Origin: Sulfurovum sp.
GTDB taxonomy: Bacteria; Campylobacterota; Campylobacteria; Campylobacterales; Sulfurovaceae
Length of the DNA stretch: 8,522 bases
Direction of reading: 5' to 3'
Assembly: GCA_026193735.1 (NCBI GenBank)
Contig: JAPHUJ010000329.1
Coordinates: 1 to 8,522, forward strand
Shown in pieces: positions 1,134 through 8,522 of the stretch. The position numbers and the translations under genes are program-made. A model generated the notes under the pieces. That model ran no database searches. It saw only the letters and a list, made by a program, of their open reading frames with translations, and was not told the DNA's origin. Position 1 is the first letter of the stretch. Every line of letters starts with the position of its first letter.

Positions 1134-1649
1134 ATGGCACGAAGAGGAAACTCGATCATTAAAGGAATTGAGATCAATGAGATCATTTCGGTACTCAATA
1201 AAGCGTATGCTGACGAATGGTTGGCCTACTATCAATATTTTATAGAAGCTAAGGTCATCAAAGGCATCATGAAAGATGCAGCCATAGCAGAACTAACACA
1301 ACATGCTGCCGATGAACTCAGACATGCAAATATGGTAGCAGACAGGATTTTACAATTGGGAGGAACCCCTCTGCTTCATCCTCAAGAGTGGTTTACCCAT
1401 ACAAACTGTGGCTATGAAGAACCAAAAGATTTTGATGTGGTGAGCATACTTGAAGATTCTATTAAAGGTGAACAGTGTGCTATCTCTGTCTATTCACACA
1501 TAGTAGAAATGACCCGTCATAAAGATGTAGTCACTTACGATATCGTCTCACAGATATTGGCAGATGAAGTAGAACATGAAGAAGATCTACAGACACTGCA
1601 TGATGATATCACTGAGTTTATCACAGATATCAAGAAAAACATGCACTAG
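1134..1649 (+). CDS. Ferritin-like diiron protein (bacterioferritin / Dps-like, DPSL type)
   Basis: The 171-residue protein is a four-helix-bundle ferritin-like protein, expected to oxidise and sequester iron or consume peroxide in the cytoplasm. The ligand pattern is complete: E28 (helix A, ADEW), E61 and H64 (ELRH, helix B), E113 (GEQC, helix C), E145 and H148 (EVEH, helix D). This is the E, ExxH, E, ExxH set of bacterioferritin-like diiron sites. There are exactly two cysteines, C92 (HTNCGYEEP) and C115 (two residues after ligand E113). A cysteine pair near a bacterioferritin-like site is the hallmark described for DPSL proteins ('thioferritins'), so that subfamily is my preferred call. 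It could instead be annotated simply as bacterioferritin. No heme-ligating methionine is evident. The ATG start has a good AAGGA site upstream. The gene has its own promoter region and ends one base before the convergent DUF5718 gene. Confidence 0.85.
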   Translation: MARRGNSIIKGIEINEIISVLNKAYADEWLAYYQYFIEAKVIKGIMKDAAIAELTQHAADELRHANMVADRILQLGGTPLLHPQEWFTHTNCGYEEPKDFDVVSILEDSIKGEQCAISVYSHIVEMTRHKDVVTYDIVSQILADEVEHEEDLQTLHDDITEFITDIKKNMH

Positions 1650-2578: not shown

Positions 2579-3145
2579 TTATTTAGGTAATGCCATAGGT
2601 TTTACCTGAAACTTCTTTCCCACATCTACGATAAAATAATCACGCAGAAAATTACGTCCTATCAGCACTGGATATTGATATGATTCTCGATCATTTAAAT
2701 TGACAGAGATAAGCTGTGAAACATCACCGATCACTATACGCATTTTTACCACATAACGCCTTTGGCTATCGTCCCCGTGGCGCTTAATTAGAATCGTTTT
2801 AATAACTTTTCTCTCTATGTCATATTTCTTTTCTCCCACCAACAGATCAAATCGTACCCATTCTTTGCCATCACGCTCAAAAGGTGTAATATTTTGGGCA
2901 TCAATAGATGTTGTCTTGGCACCTGTGTCAATACGCGCTTTAAGTACTATATTGGGTGGTACTAGACGAACATTTTCTATGGCTCCAATAATGCTCTTGG
3001 AATCAGGTTTCTCGGTATTGAGATTTTCGAAAGTGCTATTTTGATCTTCTACAGGTAGTGTTTTCACTTTGGCTTCAATAAAAGATGTAGTGCAAAACAA
3101 AAGCACCAACAGGATACCGTAGCGCCATTTCATTTGTAAAATCAT
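2579..3145 (-). CDS. Exported retropepsin-like aspartic protease, RimK-associated type (old name: ATP-dependent zinc protease)
   Basis: The 188-residue protein has an N-terminal hydrophobic segment (residues 9-20, GILLVLLFCTTS) that acts as a signal peptide or anchor. A linker of about 35 residues follows, then a single retropepsin-like domain. The catalytic motif is ARIDTGAKTTSIDA, with DTG at 73-75. The matching C-terminal landmark is YPVLIGRNFLRDYFIVD (158-174). Such one-lobe proteases work as homodimers, each chain giving one aspartate. Family members are often beside RimK-like ATP-grasp ligases and are still labelled 'ATP-dependent zinc protease', though nothing here binds ATP or zinc. 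No ligase is nearby. The first ATG (3145) is supported by GGAG with 7-base spacing; the ATG at 3133 has no such site. The protein probably acts in the periplasm, and its substrate is unknown. Confidence 0.85.
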   Translation of the reverse strand: MILQMKWRYGILLVLLFCTTSFIEAKVKTLPVEDQNSTFENLNTEKPDSKSIIGAIENVRLVPPNIVLKARIDTGAKTTSIDAQNITPFERDGKEWVRFDLLVGEKKYDIERKVIKTILIKRHGDDSQRRYVVKMRIVIGDVSQLISVNLNDRESYQYPVLIGRNFLRDYFIVDVGKKFQVKPMALPK

Positions 3146-3488: not shown

Positions 3489-4466
3489 TTACTGCGTAAG
3501 ACCTGTTAATATCTTTTTCATTCCTGCTTGTGCTGCTTCCAAAACTTCCATATCTTCTTTGTTATCAATGGCCATAGAACTCATCCAATTATATACAGAA
3601 GGAAAGCCTATTTGCATCATGTCCTCATTTTTCTTTTTACTAAGATAGAGTGAACATGGTGCATATGCTCCTGCTTCCGGTCTTGTTTTGGCAATGGTAT
3701 ATATTACCGGTAGTTTACAAATAGAATACACTTCATAAAAATCAAATGCTTCATAGTTTGATTCGTCAAAATCATCACCTAGATTATTATGCCCAGCAAT
3801 GACAAATCCATTAGGTGCGAGCTCACCTTCAAAGCCCATCTTAAATTCTTCTAACTGATCTTCCCACTCATCTGCATCCATTTCCATGCTAAAACTAGTT
3901 ACAAGCTCAGCTTTTGCTTCTTGTATCCCATAAGGTAACTCGTCAAATGAACCATTTGGCATCGCTTTTTTTAACGTTTGTTTTACAAGTGTTCTTAAGT
4001 CATGTAAAGTTTTATCATCAATGGGTGCTTTTATAATTTTAGCCATTGCTTCCGCCGTTAAAGAAGAGACTGAAATGGTTTTTTCACCTTTTTTTGTATA
4101 AATAGACATACTCATAGGAGCAAAAAGACCTATATTCGGATATTTCTTAACCAGCTCCAGGACTGTATCTTGTTTATAAAATGTAAAAAGATTATAGATA
4201 TCAAAACTTGACTCTTTAAACTGTTTAACAAAAGGTCCATTCATATCTCTGTTAGCAGAGATAATAAACCCTGCTTCTTTAAATGCCTTTTCTATACTTG
4301 CCGGAGTGATTTTCCCATCTGCATTTTCTGAAGTAAATATTTCAATATCAGCCGTAGCGTTCTTAATAATAGTAGGTTCCTTAGGTGCGACATTTACTAT
4401 TTCTTTTGCCATCACTCCAGTAACTACCAATAATGCACAAAGCATTCCTTTAATAAACATATTCAT
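3489..4466 (-). CDS. Exported protein with two DUF302-like domains (paralogue A)
   Basis: The 325-residue protein has a signal peptide (cleavage likely after VMA, residue 20) and two DUF302-like halves, so it is probably periplasmic. The first half contains FIISANRDMNGPFVKQF (67-83) and the GLFAPMSMSIYTKKG segment (113-127). The second contains GFVIAGHN (220-227), SICKLPVIYTIAKTRPEAG (248-266) and APCSLYL (269-275). In DUF302 families the conserved pattern is a Cys followed about 20 residues later by PC. The second half keeps both (C250, C271). In the first half the equivalent places are F/Y and APM, so only the second domain could do cysteine chemistry. DUF302 has no established biochemical function. 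The ATG at 4466 has AAGGA upstream. It lies 30 bases downstream of its paralogue and is the last gene of the block. Confidence 0.75.
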   Translation of the reverse strand: MNMFIKGMLCALLVVTGVMAKEIVNVAPKEPTIIKNATADIEIFTSENADGKITPASIEKAFKEAGFIISANRDMNGPFVKQFKESSFDIYNLFTFYKQDTVLELVKKYPNIGLFAPMSMSIYTKKGEKTISVSSLTAEAMAKIIKAPIDDKTLHDLRTLVKQTLKKAMPNGSFDELPYGIQEAKAELVTSFSMEMDADEWEDQLEEFKMGFEGELAPNGFVIAGHNNLGDDFDESNYEAFDFYEVYSICKLPVIYTIAKTRPEAGAYAPCSLYLSKKKNEDMMQIGFPSVYNWMSSMAIDNKEDMEVLEAAQAGMKKILTGLTQ

Positions 4467-4496
4467 TTTTAATTTTCCTTTTATTTTATTTTATTT

Positions 4497-5414
4497 TTAT
4501 TCTGCAGATTCTTCTATAATATTCTGCATATCTGATTGTGCTTTTTCTAACATTGCTAACAATTTTTTGTCATCAATGGCTAGTGTTGAAGTAAGATTGT
4601 CTATATTTAAAGAGACTATCTCTGTTTTATTACTTCCTTTTTTATGATAGATCACCATAGTACAAGGTGCAAAAGCACCTGCCTCAGGCTTTGTTTTAGA
4701 AAGTTCGTAAATAATTTTCAACTTACAAAGAGAATAAGCATCATAAAACAGATAGTCTTCTCTCTTCTCCTCTTTGAGTACAGCATTAAAGTCAATATAA
4801 TTCGCCACAACAAAACCACTTGGTTTCATACCGTTCTGCATCATCATCATAAGATCACCCATGGCTTCCACAGCTTCATCATCATCAACATCAAAAGAAT
4901 ACTTTGTATACAATGGCTTATCTGTTTTTACATTTTCATAACCTAAGGATGTTTCAACCGCTGTAGGGAGTATGCTCATTATAGTTTTTTTATTGAGTGC
5001 CTCCAGATCAGAGAACAAAGGATCTTTCTTTTTTATAATATTTTCTTGCGCTTTAGCCGTTAAAAATGCTATGTAAAGGGCATCATCACCTTGATGTTGA
5101 TAGACTGTAATAGAAAAGGGTGTAAAAATACCACTTTCGGCATATTTAGGTACTAATCCCACAGATGTTTCAGGGTGGTAGACTGACATAAGGCTATAGC
5201 TTTGAAAGGTAGTTGTACCAAACTGTTTTTTGTATGGACCGTTCATATCTTGGTTTTTAGCTACCATATATCCATTTGCTGTTAAACCATCTGCAATGGA
5301 CTGTGCACTTACTTTTAAATCTTTATTCTCTACTTTATAAAGTAGAATGTCATCATTGGCAAAAGCAGTTCCATAGGTTAATATCAATACAAATATCAGT
5401 ATCAATTTTTTCAT
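4497..5414 (-). CDS. Exported protein with two DUF302-like domains (paralogue B)
   Basis: This 305-residue paralogue of the next gene has the signal peptide MKKLILIFVLILTYGTAFAN (cleavage likely after AFA). The domain order is the same: NQDMNGPYKKQF (54-65) and SGIFTPFSITVYQHQG (94-109) in the first half; GFVVAN (200-205), YSLCKLKIIYELSKTKPEAG (227-246) and APCTMVIYHKKG (249-260) in the second. As in paralogue A, the Cys pair survives only in the second half (C230, C251, also 21 residues apart). The exact conservation of DMNGP and PEAGA.APC between copies shows tandem duplication under selection. A TTG three bases upstream (5417) could extend the frame by one residue, but the ATG at 5414 has the better spacing to AAGGA. 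It starts 67 bases after the DsrE gene. The role is unknown; a thiol or sulfur-related periplasmic role is inferred from context. Confidence 0.75.
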   Translation of the reverse strand: MKKLILIFVLILTYGTAFANDDILLYKVENKDLKVSAQSIADGLTANGYMVAKNQDMNGPYKKQFGTTTFQSYSLMSVYHPETSVGLVPKYAESGIFTPFSITVYQHQGDDALYIAFLTAKAQENIIKKKDPLFSDLEALNKKTIMSILPTAVETSLGYENVKTDKPLYTKYSFDVDDDEAVEAMGDLMMMMQNGMKPSGFVVANYIDFNAVLKEEKREDYLFYDAYSLCKLKIIYELSKTKPEAGAFAPCTMVIYHKKGSNKTEIVSLNIDNLTSTLAIDDKKLLAMLEKAQSDMQNIIEESAE

Positions 5415-5461
5415 CAAATCATCCTTATTATTTTATATAGTAATATACCAATTTTGTGTAA

Positions 5462-5467
5462 ATTATA
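5462..5467 (-). promoter_or_regulatory. Candidate -10 box for the DUF302 gene pair
   Basis: On the minus strand TATAAT occurs within TTTACATATAATTTACAC, 48 bases before the ATG at 5414 and inside the 67-base gap after the DsrE gene. This is the only gap in the block large enough for an internal promoter. The DUF302 pair might therefore be transcribed both from the upstream operon promoter and from here. No clear -35 is present. Confidence 0.4.
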
Positions 5468-5481
5468 TGTAAAATAACTAT

Positions 5482-5919
5482 CTATGGTCGTATATAAGTA
5501 TACCCCTGTAATTGTTTTTCAATGATCTCTACGATCCCTGCTGTGACTATCTCAACATCATCAAGTAGATCTTTTTTTTCTATCTTGAGTGTACGCATCG
5601 TATTGCCGCAAGCGATAAACACGACATCATAGGTCATCAAAGCTTCAACACGCTTACGGATATCCGTATCCCATTTTTTCAATAAAGTATGTATACCTTG
5701 AGAATATGCAACTACCACAATCTCTGTATTTTCAGGTCTATAAAATTTCATCACATTATTCACAGAACTTAACACGTGGTTTATCTCTTTTTTATCACCG
5801 GAGACGATGGAAAAAACTATTTTCCTCGGGTTATCAATCGAAGGTTTGGGTTCAGCGAACTCTGTTTCTGCAAAGCCCATACTGAACAATAATACAAATG
5901 CCATCACTATCTGTTTCAT
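5482..5919 (-). CDS. Exported DsrE-family protein (YchN-like, COG1416 type)
   Basis: The 145-residue protein consists of a signal peptide (MKQIVMAFVLLFSMGFAETE; cleavage likely after GFA, residue 17) and one DsrE/DsrF-like Rossmann-type domain. Typical landmarks are KIVFSIVSGD (33-42), EIVVVAYSQGIHTLL (66-80), YDVVFIACGNTM (97-108), then IVTAGIVEIIEKQLQGYTYIRP at the C-terminus. C104 in the ACGNT turn is the only cysteine. It is in the usual place of the reactive cysteine that carries persulfide in some DsrE relatives, but family membership alone does not prove sulfur transfer. Cytoplasmic relatives (DsrE, TusD) work in sulfur relay, whereas this one is exported. Its start is 4 bases after the stop of the cytochrome-thioredoxin gene, and its AAAGG ribosome binding site overlaps that gene's last codons, so translation is closely coupled. 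Confidence 0.88.
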   Translation of the reverse strand: MKQIVMAFVLLFSMGFAETEFAEPKPSIDNPRKIVFSIVSGDKKEINHVLSSVNNVMKFYRPENTEIVVVAYSQGIHTLLKKWDTDIRKRVEALMTYDVVFIACGNTMRTLKIEKKDLLDDVEIVTAGIVEIIEKQLQGYTYIRP

Positions 5920-5923
5920 TTCT

Positions 5924-6700
5924 TTACCTTTTTAGTTGGATTTTATCTTTTGCTTCCTTGAGGATATCAAGAAAATCTTCTTTGTTCCATGAACCTGGAA
6001 TGTTGTTTATTACTCTACCTTTTTTATCAATAAAAATAAAGCTTGGTGTCAAATAAGCCTTTAATCCCAAGGGGAGTTTTGTAGTAGAGATATCTACTTC
6101 AACAGGAACAAAGTCTTTTTCTAAAACCTGAATCACCTCTTCCTCTATCATTACTTCTGCATCCATTTTTCTACAGAAATGGCATTCTTTTGTCATGACT
6201 TTGATCATTATGATCTTGTTTTCTTTTTCTGCCTTTTCCAATGCTTTGTCAAAACCTTCGTACTTCACACTTTTTTCTTTGATCACCTTCGTATCAAAAT
6301 CATAAATAAATGTACTCACTTCTTCCAATTCATCTTCTGTAACCTTTCCCTTTAAACTGGGCATGGTTTTAAAATGCTGCATCACATCATCTAGACAGAG
6401 ACTCTTCTCTCTATCTGGGTTGAACACATACTCACTGATGAAGGCTGCCACTTCCATGCGGTGTATGTCATTATCACCTTTAGGATCACCGATACGCTGC
6501 TTTAGTCGGTAAGAGAGTTGGTTTAGCGTGGGTGCAGTCAGTTTAAGCAGTGTATTGTTATGATCTAAAAAATTCTCTTTTAACTTAGACATAGAGATAA
6601 AGCCTTGATGGCATGAAGCACATTTTTTTTCATAAACTTCTTGCCCTTCTACTCCAAAAAGCAGACTTGCACACAAAAAAACCGATAACACTAATTTCAC
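5924..6700 (-). CDS. Periplasmic cytochrome c-thioredoxin fusion protein
   Basis: The 258-residue protein joins two redox domains. After a signal peptide (1-18) comes a class I-like monoheme cytochrome c domain (about 20-136). Its heme motif is CASCH (27-31), and M113 in FKTMPSLKG is the likely axial ligand, followed by the usual final helix (EDELEEVSTFIYDF). A thioredoxin-fold domain (about 145-255) follows, with CHFC (173-176) in TKECHFCRKMDAEVM and the cis-proline in YLTPSFIF (P219). This arrangement could move electrons between a protein thiol or disulfide and the respiratory cytochrome pool. SoxW-like thioredoxins of sulfur oxidisers are a possible analogue. The start is GTG at 6700, preceded by GAGGA. 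It overlaps the stop of the preceding hydrolase gene by four bases (GTGA), so translation is coupled. The domain assignment is strong; the physiological partner is not known. Confidence 0.88.
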   Translation of the reverse strand: MKLVLSVFLCASLLFGVEGQEVYEKKCASCHQGFISMSKLKENFLDHNNTLLKLTAPTLNQLSYRLKQRIGDPKGDNDIHRMEVAAFISEYVFNPDREKSLCLDDVMQHFKTMPSLKGKVTEDELEEVSTFIYDFDTKVIKEKSVKYEGFDKALEKAEKENKIIMIKVMTKECHFCRKMDAEVMIEEEVIQVLEKDFVPVEVDISTTKLPLGLKAYLTPSFIFIDKKGRVINNIPGSWNKEDFLDILKEAKDKIQLKR

Positions 6701-7614
6701 TCTTCATCCTCGCTATACATTTCTAATTCACTGTATGCATCAAAAACATTACGACGATGAAGCACATCATAAAGCTTCATGTGCTTATACTCCGGCATCA
6801 CCACACGTTTGGTAATTTCATCGATACCCACATCATCCGATAAAGCCTCTAAAATTTGCTTTTTCATCTCAATGAGATATCTTTTAAATACCTGTGTAGC
6901 ATTGGAGTCTGTTGCATAACCATGCCCGCCTACTATGACTTCAGCATGCATGCTATCTATAAGATCCAAAGCTTTAAGTGAACCAATGATGGAGCCGTCA
7001 CGCAAAGAACTCAACCTATCATTAAAGACCAGATCTCCTACAAAAAGTACCTTTTTTTGAGGTAAATAGACAATAAGATCGCCTTTTGTGTGTGCTTTGT
7101 CTACCAATTGTTTTATGGCAAATGCAGTACCACCTATGGTAAAATCATAATATTGATCAACTACTCTATCGAGTTTTACTACTTCAGTACCCGCGTAAAT
7201 CTCTTTGCCTACACTCTTTGCCATGCGTGTAGTCATTCCTGGTATGACATTTTGTTCATAGGTCTTTGGACCCATCAACAAAGCGCCTTTGCTTTTATAA
7301 AAACTATTGCCCAACCAATGGTCATCATGATCATGTGTATTGATGACAAATTTTACAGGGAGTTTTGCGATCTCTTGCATTTGAGTATACGCCTGTTGTG
7401 CATAACCAAAAGTAGGACCGCTGTCGATAACGACAAAGCCCTCTTTTGTTTTTACAAAGCATGTGTTGACCATGTTGCCACCATTTTCTTTGCTTATGTT
7501 TTCAGGTGCTCCAAAAAAACAGTAAACATCTTTGGCAAGTTCCACAGGCTTTAAGTGATATTCATACGCCTGTAGAGTCAAAAATGACAAACAAAACACC
7601 ATCATGCTTTTCAT
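6697..7614 (-). CDS. Exported metallo-beta-lactamase-fold hydrolase (quinoprotein relay / SoxH-like)
   Basis: The 305-residue protein has a short signal peptide (1-16) and a complete binuclear MBL metal site: THDHDDH (93-99; H94, H96, D98, H99), H175 in KAHTKGDL, D194 in FVGDLVF and H231 in GGHG. The order and the segment AHTKGDLIVYLPQKKVLFVGDL resemble the periplasmic SoxH and 'quinoprotein relay system zinc metallohydrolase' group rather than the true antibiotic beta-lactamases. It is less like the mononuclear-iron ETHE1 persulfide dioxygenases, since it keeps the full two-metal set. The SoxH substrate is unsettled; glutathione or other thiol esters have been suggested for the fold. The ATG at 7614 has AGGA upstream and lies nine bases after the porin stop. 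Its end overlaps the cytochrome-thioredoxin start by four bases, so it sits firmly in the operon. Confidence 0.87.
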   Translation of the reverse strand: MKSMMVFCLSFLTLQAYEYHLKPVELAKDVYCFFGAPENISKENGGNMVNTCFVKTKEGFVVIDSGPTFGYAQQAYTQMQEIAKLPVKFVINTHDHDDHWLGNSFYKSKGALLMGPKTYEQNVIPGMTTRMAKSVGKEIYAGTEVVKLDRVVDQYYDFTIGGTAFAIKQLVDKAHTKGDLIVYLPQKKVLFVGDLVFNDRLSSLRDGSIIGSLKALDLIDSMHAEVIVGGHGYATDSNATQVFKRYLIEMKKQILEALSDDVGIDEITKRVVMPEYKHMKLYDVLHRRNVFDAYSELEMYSEDEE

Positions 7615-7623
7615 ATCTTTATC

Positions 7624-8522
7624 CTAGAAAAGGTAGTTAAACTCTAAACGATATTCATTATAAGACACATCTGCTTTACCTGTTGATCCTGGATCAGCAT
7701 CAACCAAACCTATACGTGTTCTCATTTGAAGTCTTTTTGTGATATTCGTCCATGTATCTAGGTGCCAGATGTTACTGTCTGCCTGTACATATGTTTTTGC
7801 ATCATCAAAATCCTGTATTGCATATCTTAAACTTGCTTTCCAAGTTGAGTTGAACTTATACACAGCTCTTGCCATAAAAGTTTCAGTATTTGCAACCCAG
7901 TTATACTGTGCCATTGCTCTTGTAAATCCACCTGTAGGAAATCCTCTCCATGGAGCAACGATATCTGCTTCATCTGCAACTTTTGAATACCCTAGTCTAA
8001 AGAAACCTTTTTTGTTTGGCATTTCAAGGTCAACTCTGGCTGCAAAAAGACTACTATCTAGTGAATTTGCTGTACTTAAATCATAACCAGCACCTATAAG
8101 AGAATCTGTCTTACCAGAAAGGTTACTGTTTGTAACTGCAGCAACATCTCCTCCACCATCATCCATTTGAGCAAAATATCTTATACCTGGTCTCACTGCC
8201 CATCCATTATCAAGCGCTACCCTATAGTGTGCTTCAGCCACAATATCGGTCACTACGCCAGGCACTGTTAAAGCACTTAATGTAAAGTCTAGATTGTCTA
8301 CAGCTTTTGTATTTACATCTGCTAAAAACATGTCATGGTTTGGATCTTCTCCAGCTGCAACAAAATTCGCATAGCTAAGCCCTTTATGTACACCTGCATC
8401 ATCATTATTATCCCATGAATTACCATCAGCATCCTTAAATGTTATAACATCATGCGCATCTTCATGGTCTCTTAGCTTTTGTTTTCCAAACCAAGCTGCT
8501 CTAGCTGTAGTTTTTGGTGCTA
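7624..8522 (-). CDS. Outer-membrane porin, Campylobacterota OprD-like type, 5' end outside window
   Basis: The minus-strand frame is open to the right edge, with no stop after 7626. The first in-frame ATG seen (8331) is internal: coherent protein sequence continues upstream of it (for example AWFGKQKLRDHEDAHDVITF, about 8432-8493), and there is no ribosome binding site. The visible 299 residues alternate hydrophobic and polar residues in amphipathic beta strands (AEAHYRVALDNGWAVRPGIRYF, TFMARAVYKFNSTWKASLRYA). They end in YNEYRLEFNYLF, a typical outer-membrane beta signal with a terminal Phe. There are no cysteines in the visible part. It is probably a passive channel for small anions or organic compounds, and it leads the operon, so it may supply the substrate of the periplasmic proteins that follow. 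The specificity cannot be told. Confidence 0.85.
   Translation of the reverse strand, partial: APKTTARAAWFGKQKLRDHEDAHDVITFKDADGNSWDNNDDAGVHKGLSYANFVAAGEDPNHDMFLADVNTKAVDNLDFTLSALTVPGVVTDIVAEAHYRVALDNGWAVRPGIRYFAQMDDGGGDVAAVTNSNLSGKTDSLIGAGYDLSTANSLDSSLFAARVDLEMPNKKGFFRLGYSKVADEADIVAPWRGFPTGGFTRAMAQYNWVANTETFMARAVYKFNSTWKASLRYAIQDFDDAKTYVQADSNIWHLDTWTNITKRLQMRTRIGLVDADPGSTGKADVSYNEYRLEFNYLF

What the first reader, a model, noticed from the sequence alone, without database searches (positions are those of the whole stretch)
3489..8522. Six-gene cluster encoding a pore and five exported redox/sulfur-fold proteins
Seen: porin, MBL hydrolase, cytochrome c-thioredoxin, DsrE, DUF302 and DUF302 genes are all on the minus strand, with spacings +9, -4, +4, +67 and +30, and every complete product has a signal peptide. 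Known: MBL/SoxH, thioredoxin, DsrE and cytochrome c families recur in sulfur-oxidation and thiol-redox pathways. Inference: these genes form one periplasmic system in which the porin admits a substrate, the MBL protein hydrolyses a thiol ester or related bond, the DsrE and DUF302 proteins bind or carry sulfur through cysteines, and the cytochrome-thioredoxin protein passes electrons to respiration. No Sox or Dsr core enzyme is in view, so this would be a distinct or accessory module. I know of no described system with this exact set.
Basis: partly seen in the sequence, partly recalled or inferred. Interest (0 to 1): 0.7.

Follow-up and report, generated by a model that had tools for sequence, protein, structure and literature searches.

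The report
Sulfur-unloading end of thiosulfate operon
These six genes are almost certainly the tail end of a bacterium's thiosulfate-oxidation gene cluster, whose core genes lie on another contig of the same assembly, and the little-studied DsrE and DUF302 proteins they encode are predicted to unload leftover sulfur from that pathway's carrier protein.

Summary
The six genes are real and as described. The claim that no Sox core is nearby is a contig-edge artefact. In same-family relatives the set follows a sensor-regulator-kinase-soxXYZAB run, same strand and order (19 of 21 loci; the other two contigs end first). In the same MAG a second contig carries soxXYZAB and stops in the porin's first 38 codons; the window starts about 170 codons further in. 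Part of the set is in print in Sulfurovum indicum (dsrE-soxW-soxH1, raised on thiosulfate). New here: in 249 Campylobacterota genomes a two-domain, two-cysteine DUF302 protein accompanies every SoxB cluster without SoxCD (21 of 21) and none with it (0 of 18), and lies beside 10 of 22 stand-alone SoxC clusters. SoxY's C-terminal arm splits the same way (GGCG 19 of 19, GGCGG 18 of 18). The contrast rests on two deep SoxB lineages, so it is one evolutionary event, and it fails in some Alphaproteobacteria. Most likely the DsrE/DUF302/thioredoxin trio removes sulfane sulfur from SoxY; no step is tested. The window's DUF302 pair has two origins, not a recent duplication.

The parts
7624..8520 (-). 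C-terminal 298 residues of an OprD/Occ-type outer-membrane porin, cut by the contig end
   Evidence: matches residues 209-513 of a 513-aa relative, 71%; fold match of that relative to OpdC, OpdK, OprD. Contig C260 of the same MAG ends in residues 1-38 of such a porin.
6697..7614 (-). Exported metallo-beta-lactamase-fold hydrolase (called soxH1 in Sulfurovum indicum)
   Evidence: PF00753; TIGR04558 SoxH-related E 1e-54 but below that model's cut-off (185.6 against 300 bits); zinc ligands H94, H96, D98, H99, H175, D194, H231 invariant in 16 rows.
7318..7335 (-). HxHDDH zinc motif of the MBL protein (residues 94-99)
   Evidence: motif in 32 of 36 SoxB-linked copies called Type I by script; the other 4 are two short pieces (L066, L168), one non-orthologue (L079) and one contig piece of a Type II cluster (L263).
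5924..6700 (-). Exported monohaem cytochrome c fused to a thioredoxin domain (its place is called soxW in Sulfurovum indicum)
   Evidence: Pfam PF00034 and PF03190/PF13098; 32 of 48 Type I copies have CxxCH and over 200 aa, the rest are shorter or lack the motif.
6608..6622 (-). CASCH haem c attachment motif (residues 27-31)
   Evidence: Sequence; C27, C30, H31 and M113 nearly invariant.
6173..6184 (-). CHFC thioredoxin active site (residues 173-176)
   Evidence: C173 and C176 invariant in 25 rows; CxxC in 48 of 48 Type I and 14 of 15 Type II copies.
5482..5919 (-). Exported single DsrE-like protein with one conserved cysteine
   Evidence: PF02635; C104 invariant in 20 rows; in 21 of 21 Type I and 14 of 18 Type II clusters.
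5608..5610 (-). Codon of the conserved DsrE cysteine (C104)
   Evidence: motif in 46 of 46 Type I and 13 of 13 Type II copies.
4497..5414 (-). DUF302b: two-domain DUF302 protein, kin of the SoxB-linked DUF302 of other families (an upstream TTG would start it at 5417)
   Evidence: PF03625; 100/100 branch with the SoxB-linked copies of f7, f8, f11; one clade with the Sulfurovum DUF302a copies rejected, p-AU 2.2e-5. Long branch (0.94).
3489..4466 (-). DUF302a: two-domain DUF302 protein of the Sulfurovum SoxB-linked type
   Evidence: PF03625; model pLDDT 89 with the fold repeated; matches DUF302 structures 1q9u (E 6e-6) and 1j3m.
3717..3719 (-). Codon of Cys250 of DUF302a
   Evidence: Cysteine in 120 of 121 relatives.
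3654..3656 (-). Codon of Cys271 of DUF302a
   Evidence: Cysteine in 120 of 121 relatives; the matching sites of domain 1 are F94 and M118.

Best explanation
By gene order in relatives and by matching contig ends in the same assembly, the six genes are most likely the downstream half of a soxXYZAB thiosulfate-oxidation cluster, and its DsrE, DUF302 and thioredoxin proteins would take the sulfane sulfur that SoxB leaves on the SoxY carrier arm and pass it on where no SoxCD is encoded beside SoxB. Shown: the gene order, the contig ends, the conserved cysteines, the SoxCD/DUF302 split and the SoxY arm split within Campylobacterota. Inferred: the porin admits thiosulfate; SoxXA loads it on SoxY; SoxB releases sulfate; the remaining SoxY persulfide is attacked by the lone DsrE cysteine or the DUF302 cysteine pair; the CxxC thioredoxin, often fused to haem c, resets the carriers and exchanges electrons with the respiratory chain (direction unknown). 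The sulfur would end on SoxYZ2-SoxCD in genomes that have it, and elsewhere (polysulfide or sulfide) in those that do not. The MBL hydrolase is an optional helper.
For: Gene order: 19 of 21 same-family loci. Same MAG: contig C260 has SoxX, SoxY, SoxA and SoxB over the NCBIfam cut-offs, a SoxZ homologue, and ends in the porin start. Phylum sample of 249: DUF302 at 21 of 21 SoxB clusters without SoxC (19 on one contig; G000 and G145 across contig ends; G147 from the coordinates, not fetched) and at 0 of 18 with SoxC. With the general PF03625 model, 15 of those 18 genomes have short DUF302 proteins elsewhere, none on the stretch with SoxB. A DUF302 paralogue is within 9 kb of 10 of 22 stand-alone SoxC clusters, also in the own genome. 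SoxY arm in the sample: GGCG 19 of 19 without SoxC (2 loci hold no SoxY), GGCGG 18 of 18 with. Cysteine pair 120 of 121. Outside the phylum: Methylosinus soxZ-soxB-DsrE-DsrE-DUF302 with no SoxC annotated or found by phmmer in 9 kb each side; DUF302 in sox clusters of Acidithiobacillia that lack soxCD (PMC5037610, passages). Expression: dsrE, soxW, soxH1 up 2.17-3.83-fold on thiosulfate versus S0 in S. indicum (PMC10045233, passages).
Against: Types I and II are two deep SoxB clades, so the perfect split is one evolutionary contrast. Outside the phylum the rule fails: DUF302 lies in SoxCD-bearing clusters of Ruegeria and a Paracoccus and of Sulfitobacter (PMC11034169, passages), and the T. thioparus sox operon lacks both soxCD and DUF302 (PMC5248467, passages). 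DsrE and the thioredoxin also accompany SoxCD-bearing clusters (14 and 17 of 18). 4 of 21 Type I clusters show no thioredoxin at my threshold (G248, G249, G290, G327). Ten stand-alone SoxC clusters lack DUF302. One Type II genome, G162, has a two-domain DUF302 far from sox, which PF03625 did not pick up, so that control is not fully sensitive; the Arcobacter-type copies L240 and L242 have no sox within 10 kb. No binding, transfer or phenotype data for DUF302.
Confidence: 0.5

Rival explanations
1. The module only keeps SoxY chemically ready: thioredoxin, DsrE and DUF302 form a thiol-repair chain like SoxS/SoxV/SoxW of Paracoccus, without carrying product sulfur.
For: The thioredoxin gene is called soxW in S. 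indicum; thioredoxin and DsrE accompany SoxB in both cluster types; alphaproteobacterial sox clusters hold CcdA plus thioredoxins.
Against: It does not explain why, in this phylum, DUF302 appears only where SoxCD is missing from the SoxB cluster, or why a paralogue sits beside many SoxCDYZ clusters.
Confidence: 0.22
2. The module is a dedicated relay that carries sulfane sulfur from SoxYZ1 to SoxYZ2-SoxCD in split Sox systems.
For: DUF302 paralogues sit at both halves in the own genome and in G024, G033, G127, G155, G232, G245, G290, G304. The two carriers have different arms, GGCG and mostly GGCEG.
Against: 8 of 21 Type I genomes have no SoxC over the cut-off and still have DUF302 (G131, G147, G154, G177, G241, G248, G249, G327). 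G003 and G133 have no DUF302 at their SoxC.
Confidence: 0.15
3. DUF302 is a passenger of one ancient operon lineage, and its link with missing SoxCD has no functional meaning.
For: Type I and II SoxB are two deep clades; a single origin of all SoxB-linked DUF302 is not excluded (75/58).
Against: DUF302 also lies in sox clusters of Methylosinus, Ruegeria, Paracoccus, Sulfitobacter and Acidithiobacillia; within Type I the same slot is filled by two well-separated DUF302 groups (100/100 branch).
Confidence: 0.1
4. One reading: an MBL-centred thiol-ester pathway separate from Sox.
For: The MBL keeps all zinc ligands.
Against: MBL is absent from 6 of 21 same-family loci and 3 of 21 Type I clusters; in the 19 loci where soxB is on the contig the genes follow it.
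Confidence: 0.03

Closest known systems
soxABXY1Z1 region of Sulfurovum indicum ST-419 (dsrE, soxW, soxH1)
   Same: Same families next to the sox core; induced on thiosulfate (PMC10045233, abstract and passages).
   Different: The text has no hit for 'DUF'; in the passages I saw, neither a cytochrome fusion nor a porin is counted to the unit, and DsrE and SoxW are only given an electron-transport role.
DUF302 gene between soxA and soxB in Thermithiobacillus, Acidithiobacillus and Thiohalorhabdus
   Same: DUF302 in a sox cluster lacking soxCD (PMC5037610, PMC5248467, passages).
   Different: 191-aa protein in another slot and in other classes; the authors suggested trithionate oxidation.
Paracoccus sox accessory genes (CcdA-like SoxV, thioredoxins SoxW and SoxS, MBL proteins)
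   Same: Periplasmic thioredoxins and MBL proteins around soxXYZAB (the Sox letters V, W, S, H are recalled).
   Different: SoxCD is in the cluster; no DUF302, DsrE or cytochrome-thioredoxin fusion is annotated there; another Paracoccus has DUF302.
Methylosinus trichosporium pOB3b1 soxZ-soxB-DsrE-DsrE-DUF302
   Same: SoxB followed by DsrE and DUF302, no SoxC in 9 kb.
   Different: Alphaproteobacterial plasmid; 192-aa DUF302; no soxX or soxA annotated nearby.

Membership tests
Sox thiosulfate-oxidation system | soxXYZAB core adjacent and on the same strand | tested here: met
   19 of 21 relatives; own genome contig C260 with SoxX, SoxY, SoxA, SoxB over the cut-offs and a SoxZ homologue. Adjacency in this genome is inferred across a gap in the porin.
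Sox thiosulfate-oxidation system | SoxY carrier with C-terminal GGCGG arm | tested here: inconclusive
   Own SoxY passes TIGR04488 but ends GGCG, one glycine short, like 19 of 19 Type I SoxY of the sample.
Sox thiosulfate-oxidation system | SoxCD sulfane dehydrogenase in the cluster | tested here: not met
   SoxC of this genome is on contig C186 with a DUF302 paralogue; the cluster is of the SoxCD-less type.
SoxH | Score over a curated SoxH-family cut-off | tested here: inconclusive
   TIGR04558 E 1e-54 but 185.6 bits against 300; that model is for PQQ-linked relatives. The label SoxH1 is the paper's.
SoxW/SoxS thioredoxin | Exported thioredoxin fold with CxxC | tested here: met
   export judged by eye. 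The haem c fusion is extra; function not tested.
DsrEFH complex | DsrE with DsrF and DsrH partners, cytoplasmic (recalled) | tested here: not met
   Single DsrE-family gene with an export-like start and no second DsrE-family gene in the window.
DUF302 (PF03625) | Pfam match over the gathering score | tested here: met
   39.1 and 30.5 bits against 23; fold match 1q9u.
Sulfur carrier acting on SoxY | Persulfide transfer from SoxYZ | not testable with these tools
   Needs purified proteins or mass spectrometry.

The most novel reading that the evidence does not exclude
A two-domain DUF302 family is a new periplasmic sulfane-sulfur carrier of Sox: in Campylobacterota it takes over next to SoxB wherever SoxCD is not encoded beside it, reads a shortened SoxY arm (GGCG instead of GGCGG), and in split systems works at both halves as the missing link between SoxYZ1-AB and SoxYZ2-CD.
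Probability: 0.3. Interest if true: 0.78.

Novelty: new variant of a known kind. Interest (0 to 1): 0.52.

Why it matters
Sulfurovum and Sulfurimonas are abundant sulfur oxidisers at vents and seeps, and most of those compared in print carry Sox split into soxABXYZ and soxCDYZ (PMC10470523, passages). I found no account of how the two halves share sulfur. The DUF302/DsrE trio and the different SoxY arms give a short list of genes and residues with which to test it, and a possible function for a domain of unknown function that recurs in sox clusters of several classes.

Tried and rejected
Rejected: a system separate from Sox; MBL as the essential enzyme; recent tandem duplication as the source of the DUF302 pair (p-AU 2.2e-5); a relay to SoxCD as the universal role (8 of 21 Type I genomes lack SoxC); cytoplasmic DsrEFH membership.

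Led nowhere: profile search of the DUF302 alignment against solved-structure sequences (0 hits); promoter and terminator scans, no more than shuffles; the electron direction of the cytochrome-thioredoxin; two plasmid records without annotation; the SoxC tree, where DUF302 comes and goes. All SoxB-linked DUF302 as one clade is neither shown nor rejected (75/58). 'Not in print' rests on the searches in an open-access library only.

Bias and dropped rows: of the 80 DUF302 loci (best 80 of 169), 22 hold SoxB, 33 SoxC or SoxD, 2 only SoxY2, 23 none; many of the 23 are short contigs, and 8 of them still hold MBL/thioredoxin/DsrE genes. Those loci were chosen by DUF302, so the unbiased test is the 249-genome sample. 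One search used 38 of the 39 genomes with SoxB over the cut-off (G147 not fetched) plus the partial G311; its Fisher p of 1.6e-11 is for that set. In Type II, G010 and G328 are cut by contig ends near SoxB, and G328's SoxC is on another contig. Pooled arm counts were 44 Type I rows, but two of them are the same genome (L085, L088), so 43; 9 rows were dropped there (8 at locus ends, 1 other paralogue), and L333 under 'C only' is a contig piece of a Type II cluster. In one search the porin was recognised in 10 of the 19 loci; 8 have an unmatched ORF of 385-412 aa in its slot and L083 has none. The kinase misses in Type I (G024, G145) are fetched-end or contig-end effects.
Full report
1. Observation. 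The window (contig 296 of a 1.70-Mb, 78%-complete MAG) holds the six minus-strand genes as described. The porin, which no Pfam model hits, looks like an OprD/Occ barrel by the fold of a relative, at modest model confidence. The closest named relatives are Sulfurovum.

2. What it is. A plasmid of Sulfurovum mangrovi shows the same genes after soxXYZA and a frame-broken soxB. I fetched 20 further same-family loci. In 19 of the 21 loci the order is soxX, Y, Z, A, B, porin slot, (MBL), (cytochrome-)thioredoxin, DsrE, DUF302, all on one strand; a cache sensor, response regulator and kinase precede soxX where the fetched stretch reaches far enough, displaced by some kb in L072. The porin slot holds a recognised porin in 10, an unmatched ORF of 385-412 aa in 8, nothing in L083. 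Two loci without sox are contigs that end just past the MBL gene. In the same MAG SoxB is on contig C260. That contig is 7,794 bases and ends in codons 1-38 of a porin whose start resembles the Sulfurovum porin; the window begins near residue 209 of 513. SoxX, SoxY, SoxA and SoxB of C260 pass the NCBIfam cut-offs. The simplest reading is one cluster with a gap of about 0.5 kb.

3. How constant the parts are. In the 21 same-family loci MBL is absent in 6 (L075, L076, L078, L079, L083, L084) and the haem half in 2 (L083, L084). In 21 Type I clusters of the phylum sample (20 genomes over the SoxB cut-off plus partial G311) DUF302 is in 21, DsrE in 21, the kinase in 19, MBL in 18, thioredoxin in 17, the porin in 15. 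So DsrE and DUF302 are the fixed part.

4. The SoxCD contrast. Of 249 Campylobacterota genomes, 39 have SoxB and 39 have SoxC over the family cut-offs. SoxB clusters fall in two types. Type II (18 genomes) has SoxC-D-X-Y-A-B together (G328 over two contigs), with thioredoxin in 17, DsrE in 14, MBL in 5 and DUF302 in 0. Type I (21 genomes) has SoxC elsewhere or nowhere, and DUF302 at 21: 19 on the same contig (G147 from coordinates only) and 2 (G000, G145) across contig ends. In G145 the MBL gene is cut by both contig ends, which supports the join. A control with the general PF03625 model found DUF302 proteins in 15 of the 18 Type II genomes, none on the stretch with SoxB; it missed the two-domain copy of G162. 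The Fisher p of 1.6e-11 must not be taken at face value: the SoxB tree puts the two types in two deep clades (100/100), so this is one contrast.

5. The other half. Of 22 stand-alone SoxC clusters in the sample, 10 have DUF302 within 9 kb, 10 do not, and 2 (G014, G257) are cut by contig ends. The own genome has one, on contig C186. Among the 80 best DUF302 relatives in named genomes 22 loci carry SoxB and 33 carry SoxC or SoxD (biased sample).

6. SoxY arms. In the phylum sample SoxY ends in GGCG in 19 of 19 Type I loci that hold it, including the own genome, where the stop codon follows directly, and in GGCGG in 18 of 18 Type II clusters. In the pooled set the Type I count is 43 of 43 distinct clusters; stand-alone SoxCDYZ clusters have GGCEG (43) or GGCGG (11, one of them a piece of a Type II cluster). 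[quoted passage not shown] I found no paper linking SoxY arms to DUF302.

7. DUF302. The model of DUF302a is confident (pLDDT 89) and repeats the DUF302 fold. Only domain 2 has the cysteine pair C250/C271, kept in 120 of 121 relatives; at the matching sites domain 1 has mostly F or M and mostly M or L. A similar cysteine pair can be read in the Sox-linked DUF302s of Methylosinus, Ruegeria and Paracoccus (by eye, not aligned). The window's two copies have different origins: DUF302b joins the SoxB-linked copies of other families (100/100), DUF302a the Sulfurovum copies; one clade of both is rejected. Four other clusters keep the same pair (L077, L170, L172, L173). DUF302b sits on a long branch (0.94), and the tree has no root, so which copy is older is not shown.

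8. Mechanism. In classical Sox, SoxXA joins thiosulfate to the SoxY cysteine (recalled), SoxCD oxidises the sulfane sulfur on SoxYZ and SoxB releases sulfate (PMC9122950, passages). Where SoxCD is not beside SoxB, something must handle that sulfur. DsrE-family proteins are sulfur carriers with one active cysteine (recalled), and DUF302 has a conserved pair. I infer that they unload SoxY, with the thioredoxin resetting them. Because 8 Type I genomes have no SoxC over the cut-off, the acceptor cannot always be SoxYZ2-SoxCD. Expression fits: dsrE, soxW and soxH1 are up 2.17-3.83-fold on thiosulfate against S0 in S. indicum (PMC10045233, passages).

9. Against. Outside the phylum the DUF302-for-SoxCD rule does not hold: Ruegeria, a Paracoccus and Sulfitobacter have both, and the T. 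thioparus sox operon has neither. The DUF302-Sox link itself does recur: Methylosinus and Acidithiobacillia (PMC5037610, which already noted that soxCD is missing there). Of the 27 plasmid records with a SoxB-like match besides Sulfurovum I opened 9; 7 had annotation and 3 of these had DUF302 near soxB.

10. Verdict. Filing: the accessory tail of the SoxCD-less soxXYZAB cluster of Campylobacterota, partly known, with a new and testable role for DUF302. Confidence in the Sox filing about 0.97; in sulfane unloading about 0.5.

Noticed in passing
L066:3240-14889 (G024, contig length equal to S. lithotrophicum 42BKT, 2,217,891 bp): Three head-to-tail copies, 3,883 bp apart and identical, of the block MBL-Trx-Trx-DsrE-DUF302a; two copies carry only a 181-aa MBL piece. 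Recent amplification of the module without the sox core, or an assembly effect.
   Followed up: partly
L091:5-8462 (G087): Exact tandem copy, 4,229 bp apart, of DUF302-SoxC-SoxD in a MAG; may be an assembly effect.
   Followed up: partly
L346 and L347 (G020, G053), and 15 hits with one in-frame TGA listed: Thioredoxin-like frames with TGA in place of the first cysteine of CxxC (*PVC) in 2 of 3 read: looks like a selenoprotein thioredoxin family.
   Followed up: partly
L090, L097, L098 (855-1056 aa): Very long proteins in which DUF302 is nearly the only domain recognised; L090 is in the own genome (contig 85). Neighbours not studied.
   Followed up: no
L088:1268-3197 (own contig C260): Between the kinase and soxX lie a 470-aa ORF with no Pfam match and a second DsrE-like gene (168 aa); in the loci only L072 and L084 show other genes in that slot.
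   Followed up: no
L338:8603-12250 (Methylosinus trichosporium pOB3b1): soxZ-soxB-DsrE-DsrE-DUF302 with no SoxC within 9 kb: an independent SoxB-DsrE-DUF302 set.
   Followed up: partly
L246 (CAMCYD010000071.1, titled Helicobacter pylori PMSS1): Its DUF302 groups with Arcobacteraceae copies; the record title is probably wrong.
   Followed up: no
upstream of soxX in Type I clusters, e.g. L067:168-3062: A dCache sensor protein, response regulator and histidine kinase precede soxX; a kinase match was found in 19 of 21 Type I and 1 of 18 Type II clusters: possibly a dedicated thiosulfate or sulfur sensor.
   Followed up: partly
window 2579-3145, minus strand: RloA/RimB-like retropepsin (PF05618) with a hydrophobic N-terminus; not matched in the nearest relative L065.
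   Followed up: no
window 1134-1649, plus strand: Ferritin-like protein (PF00210) nearest to archaeal-type Dps models of NCBIfam, all below their cut-offs.
   Followed up: no
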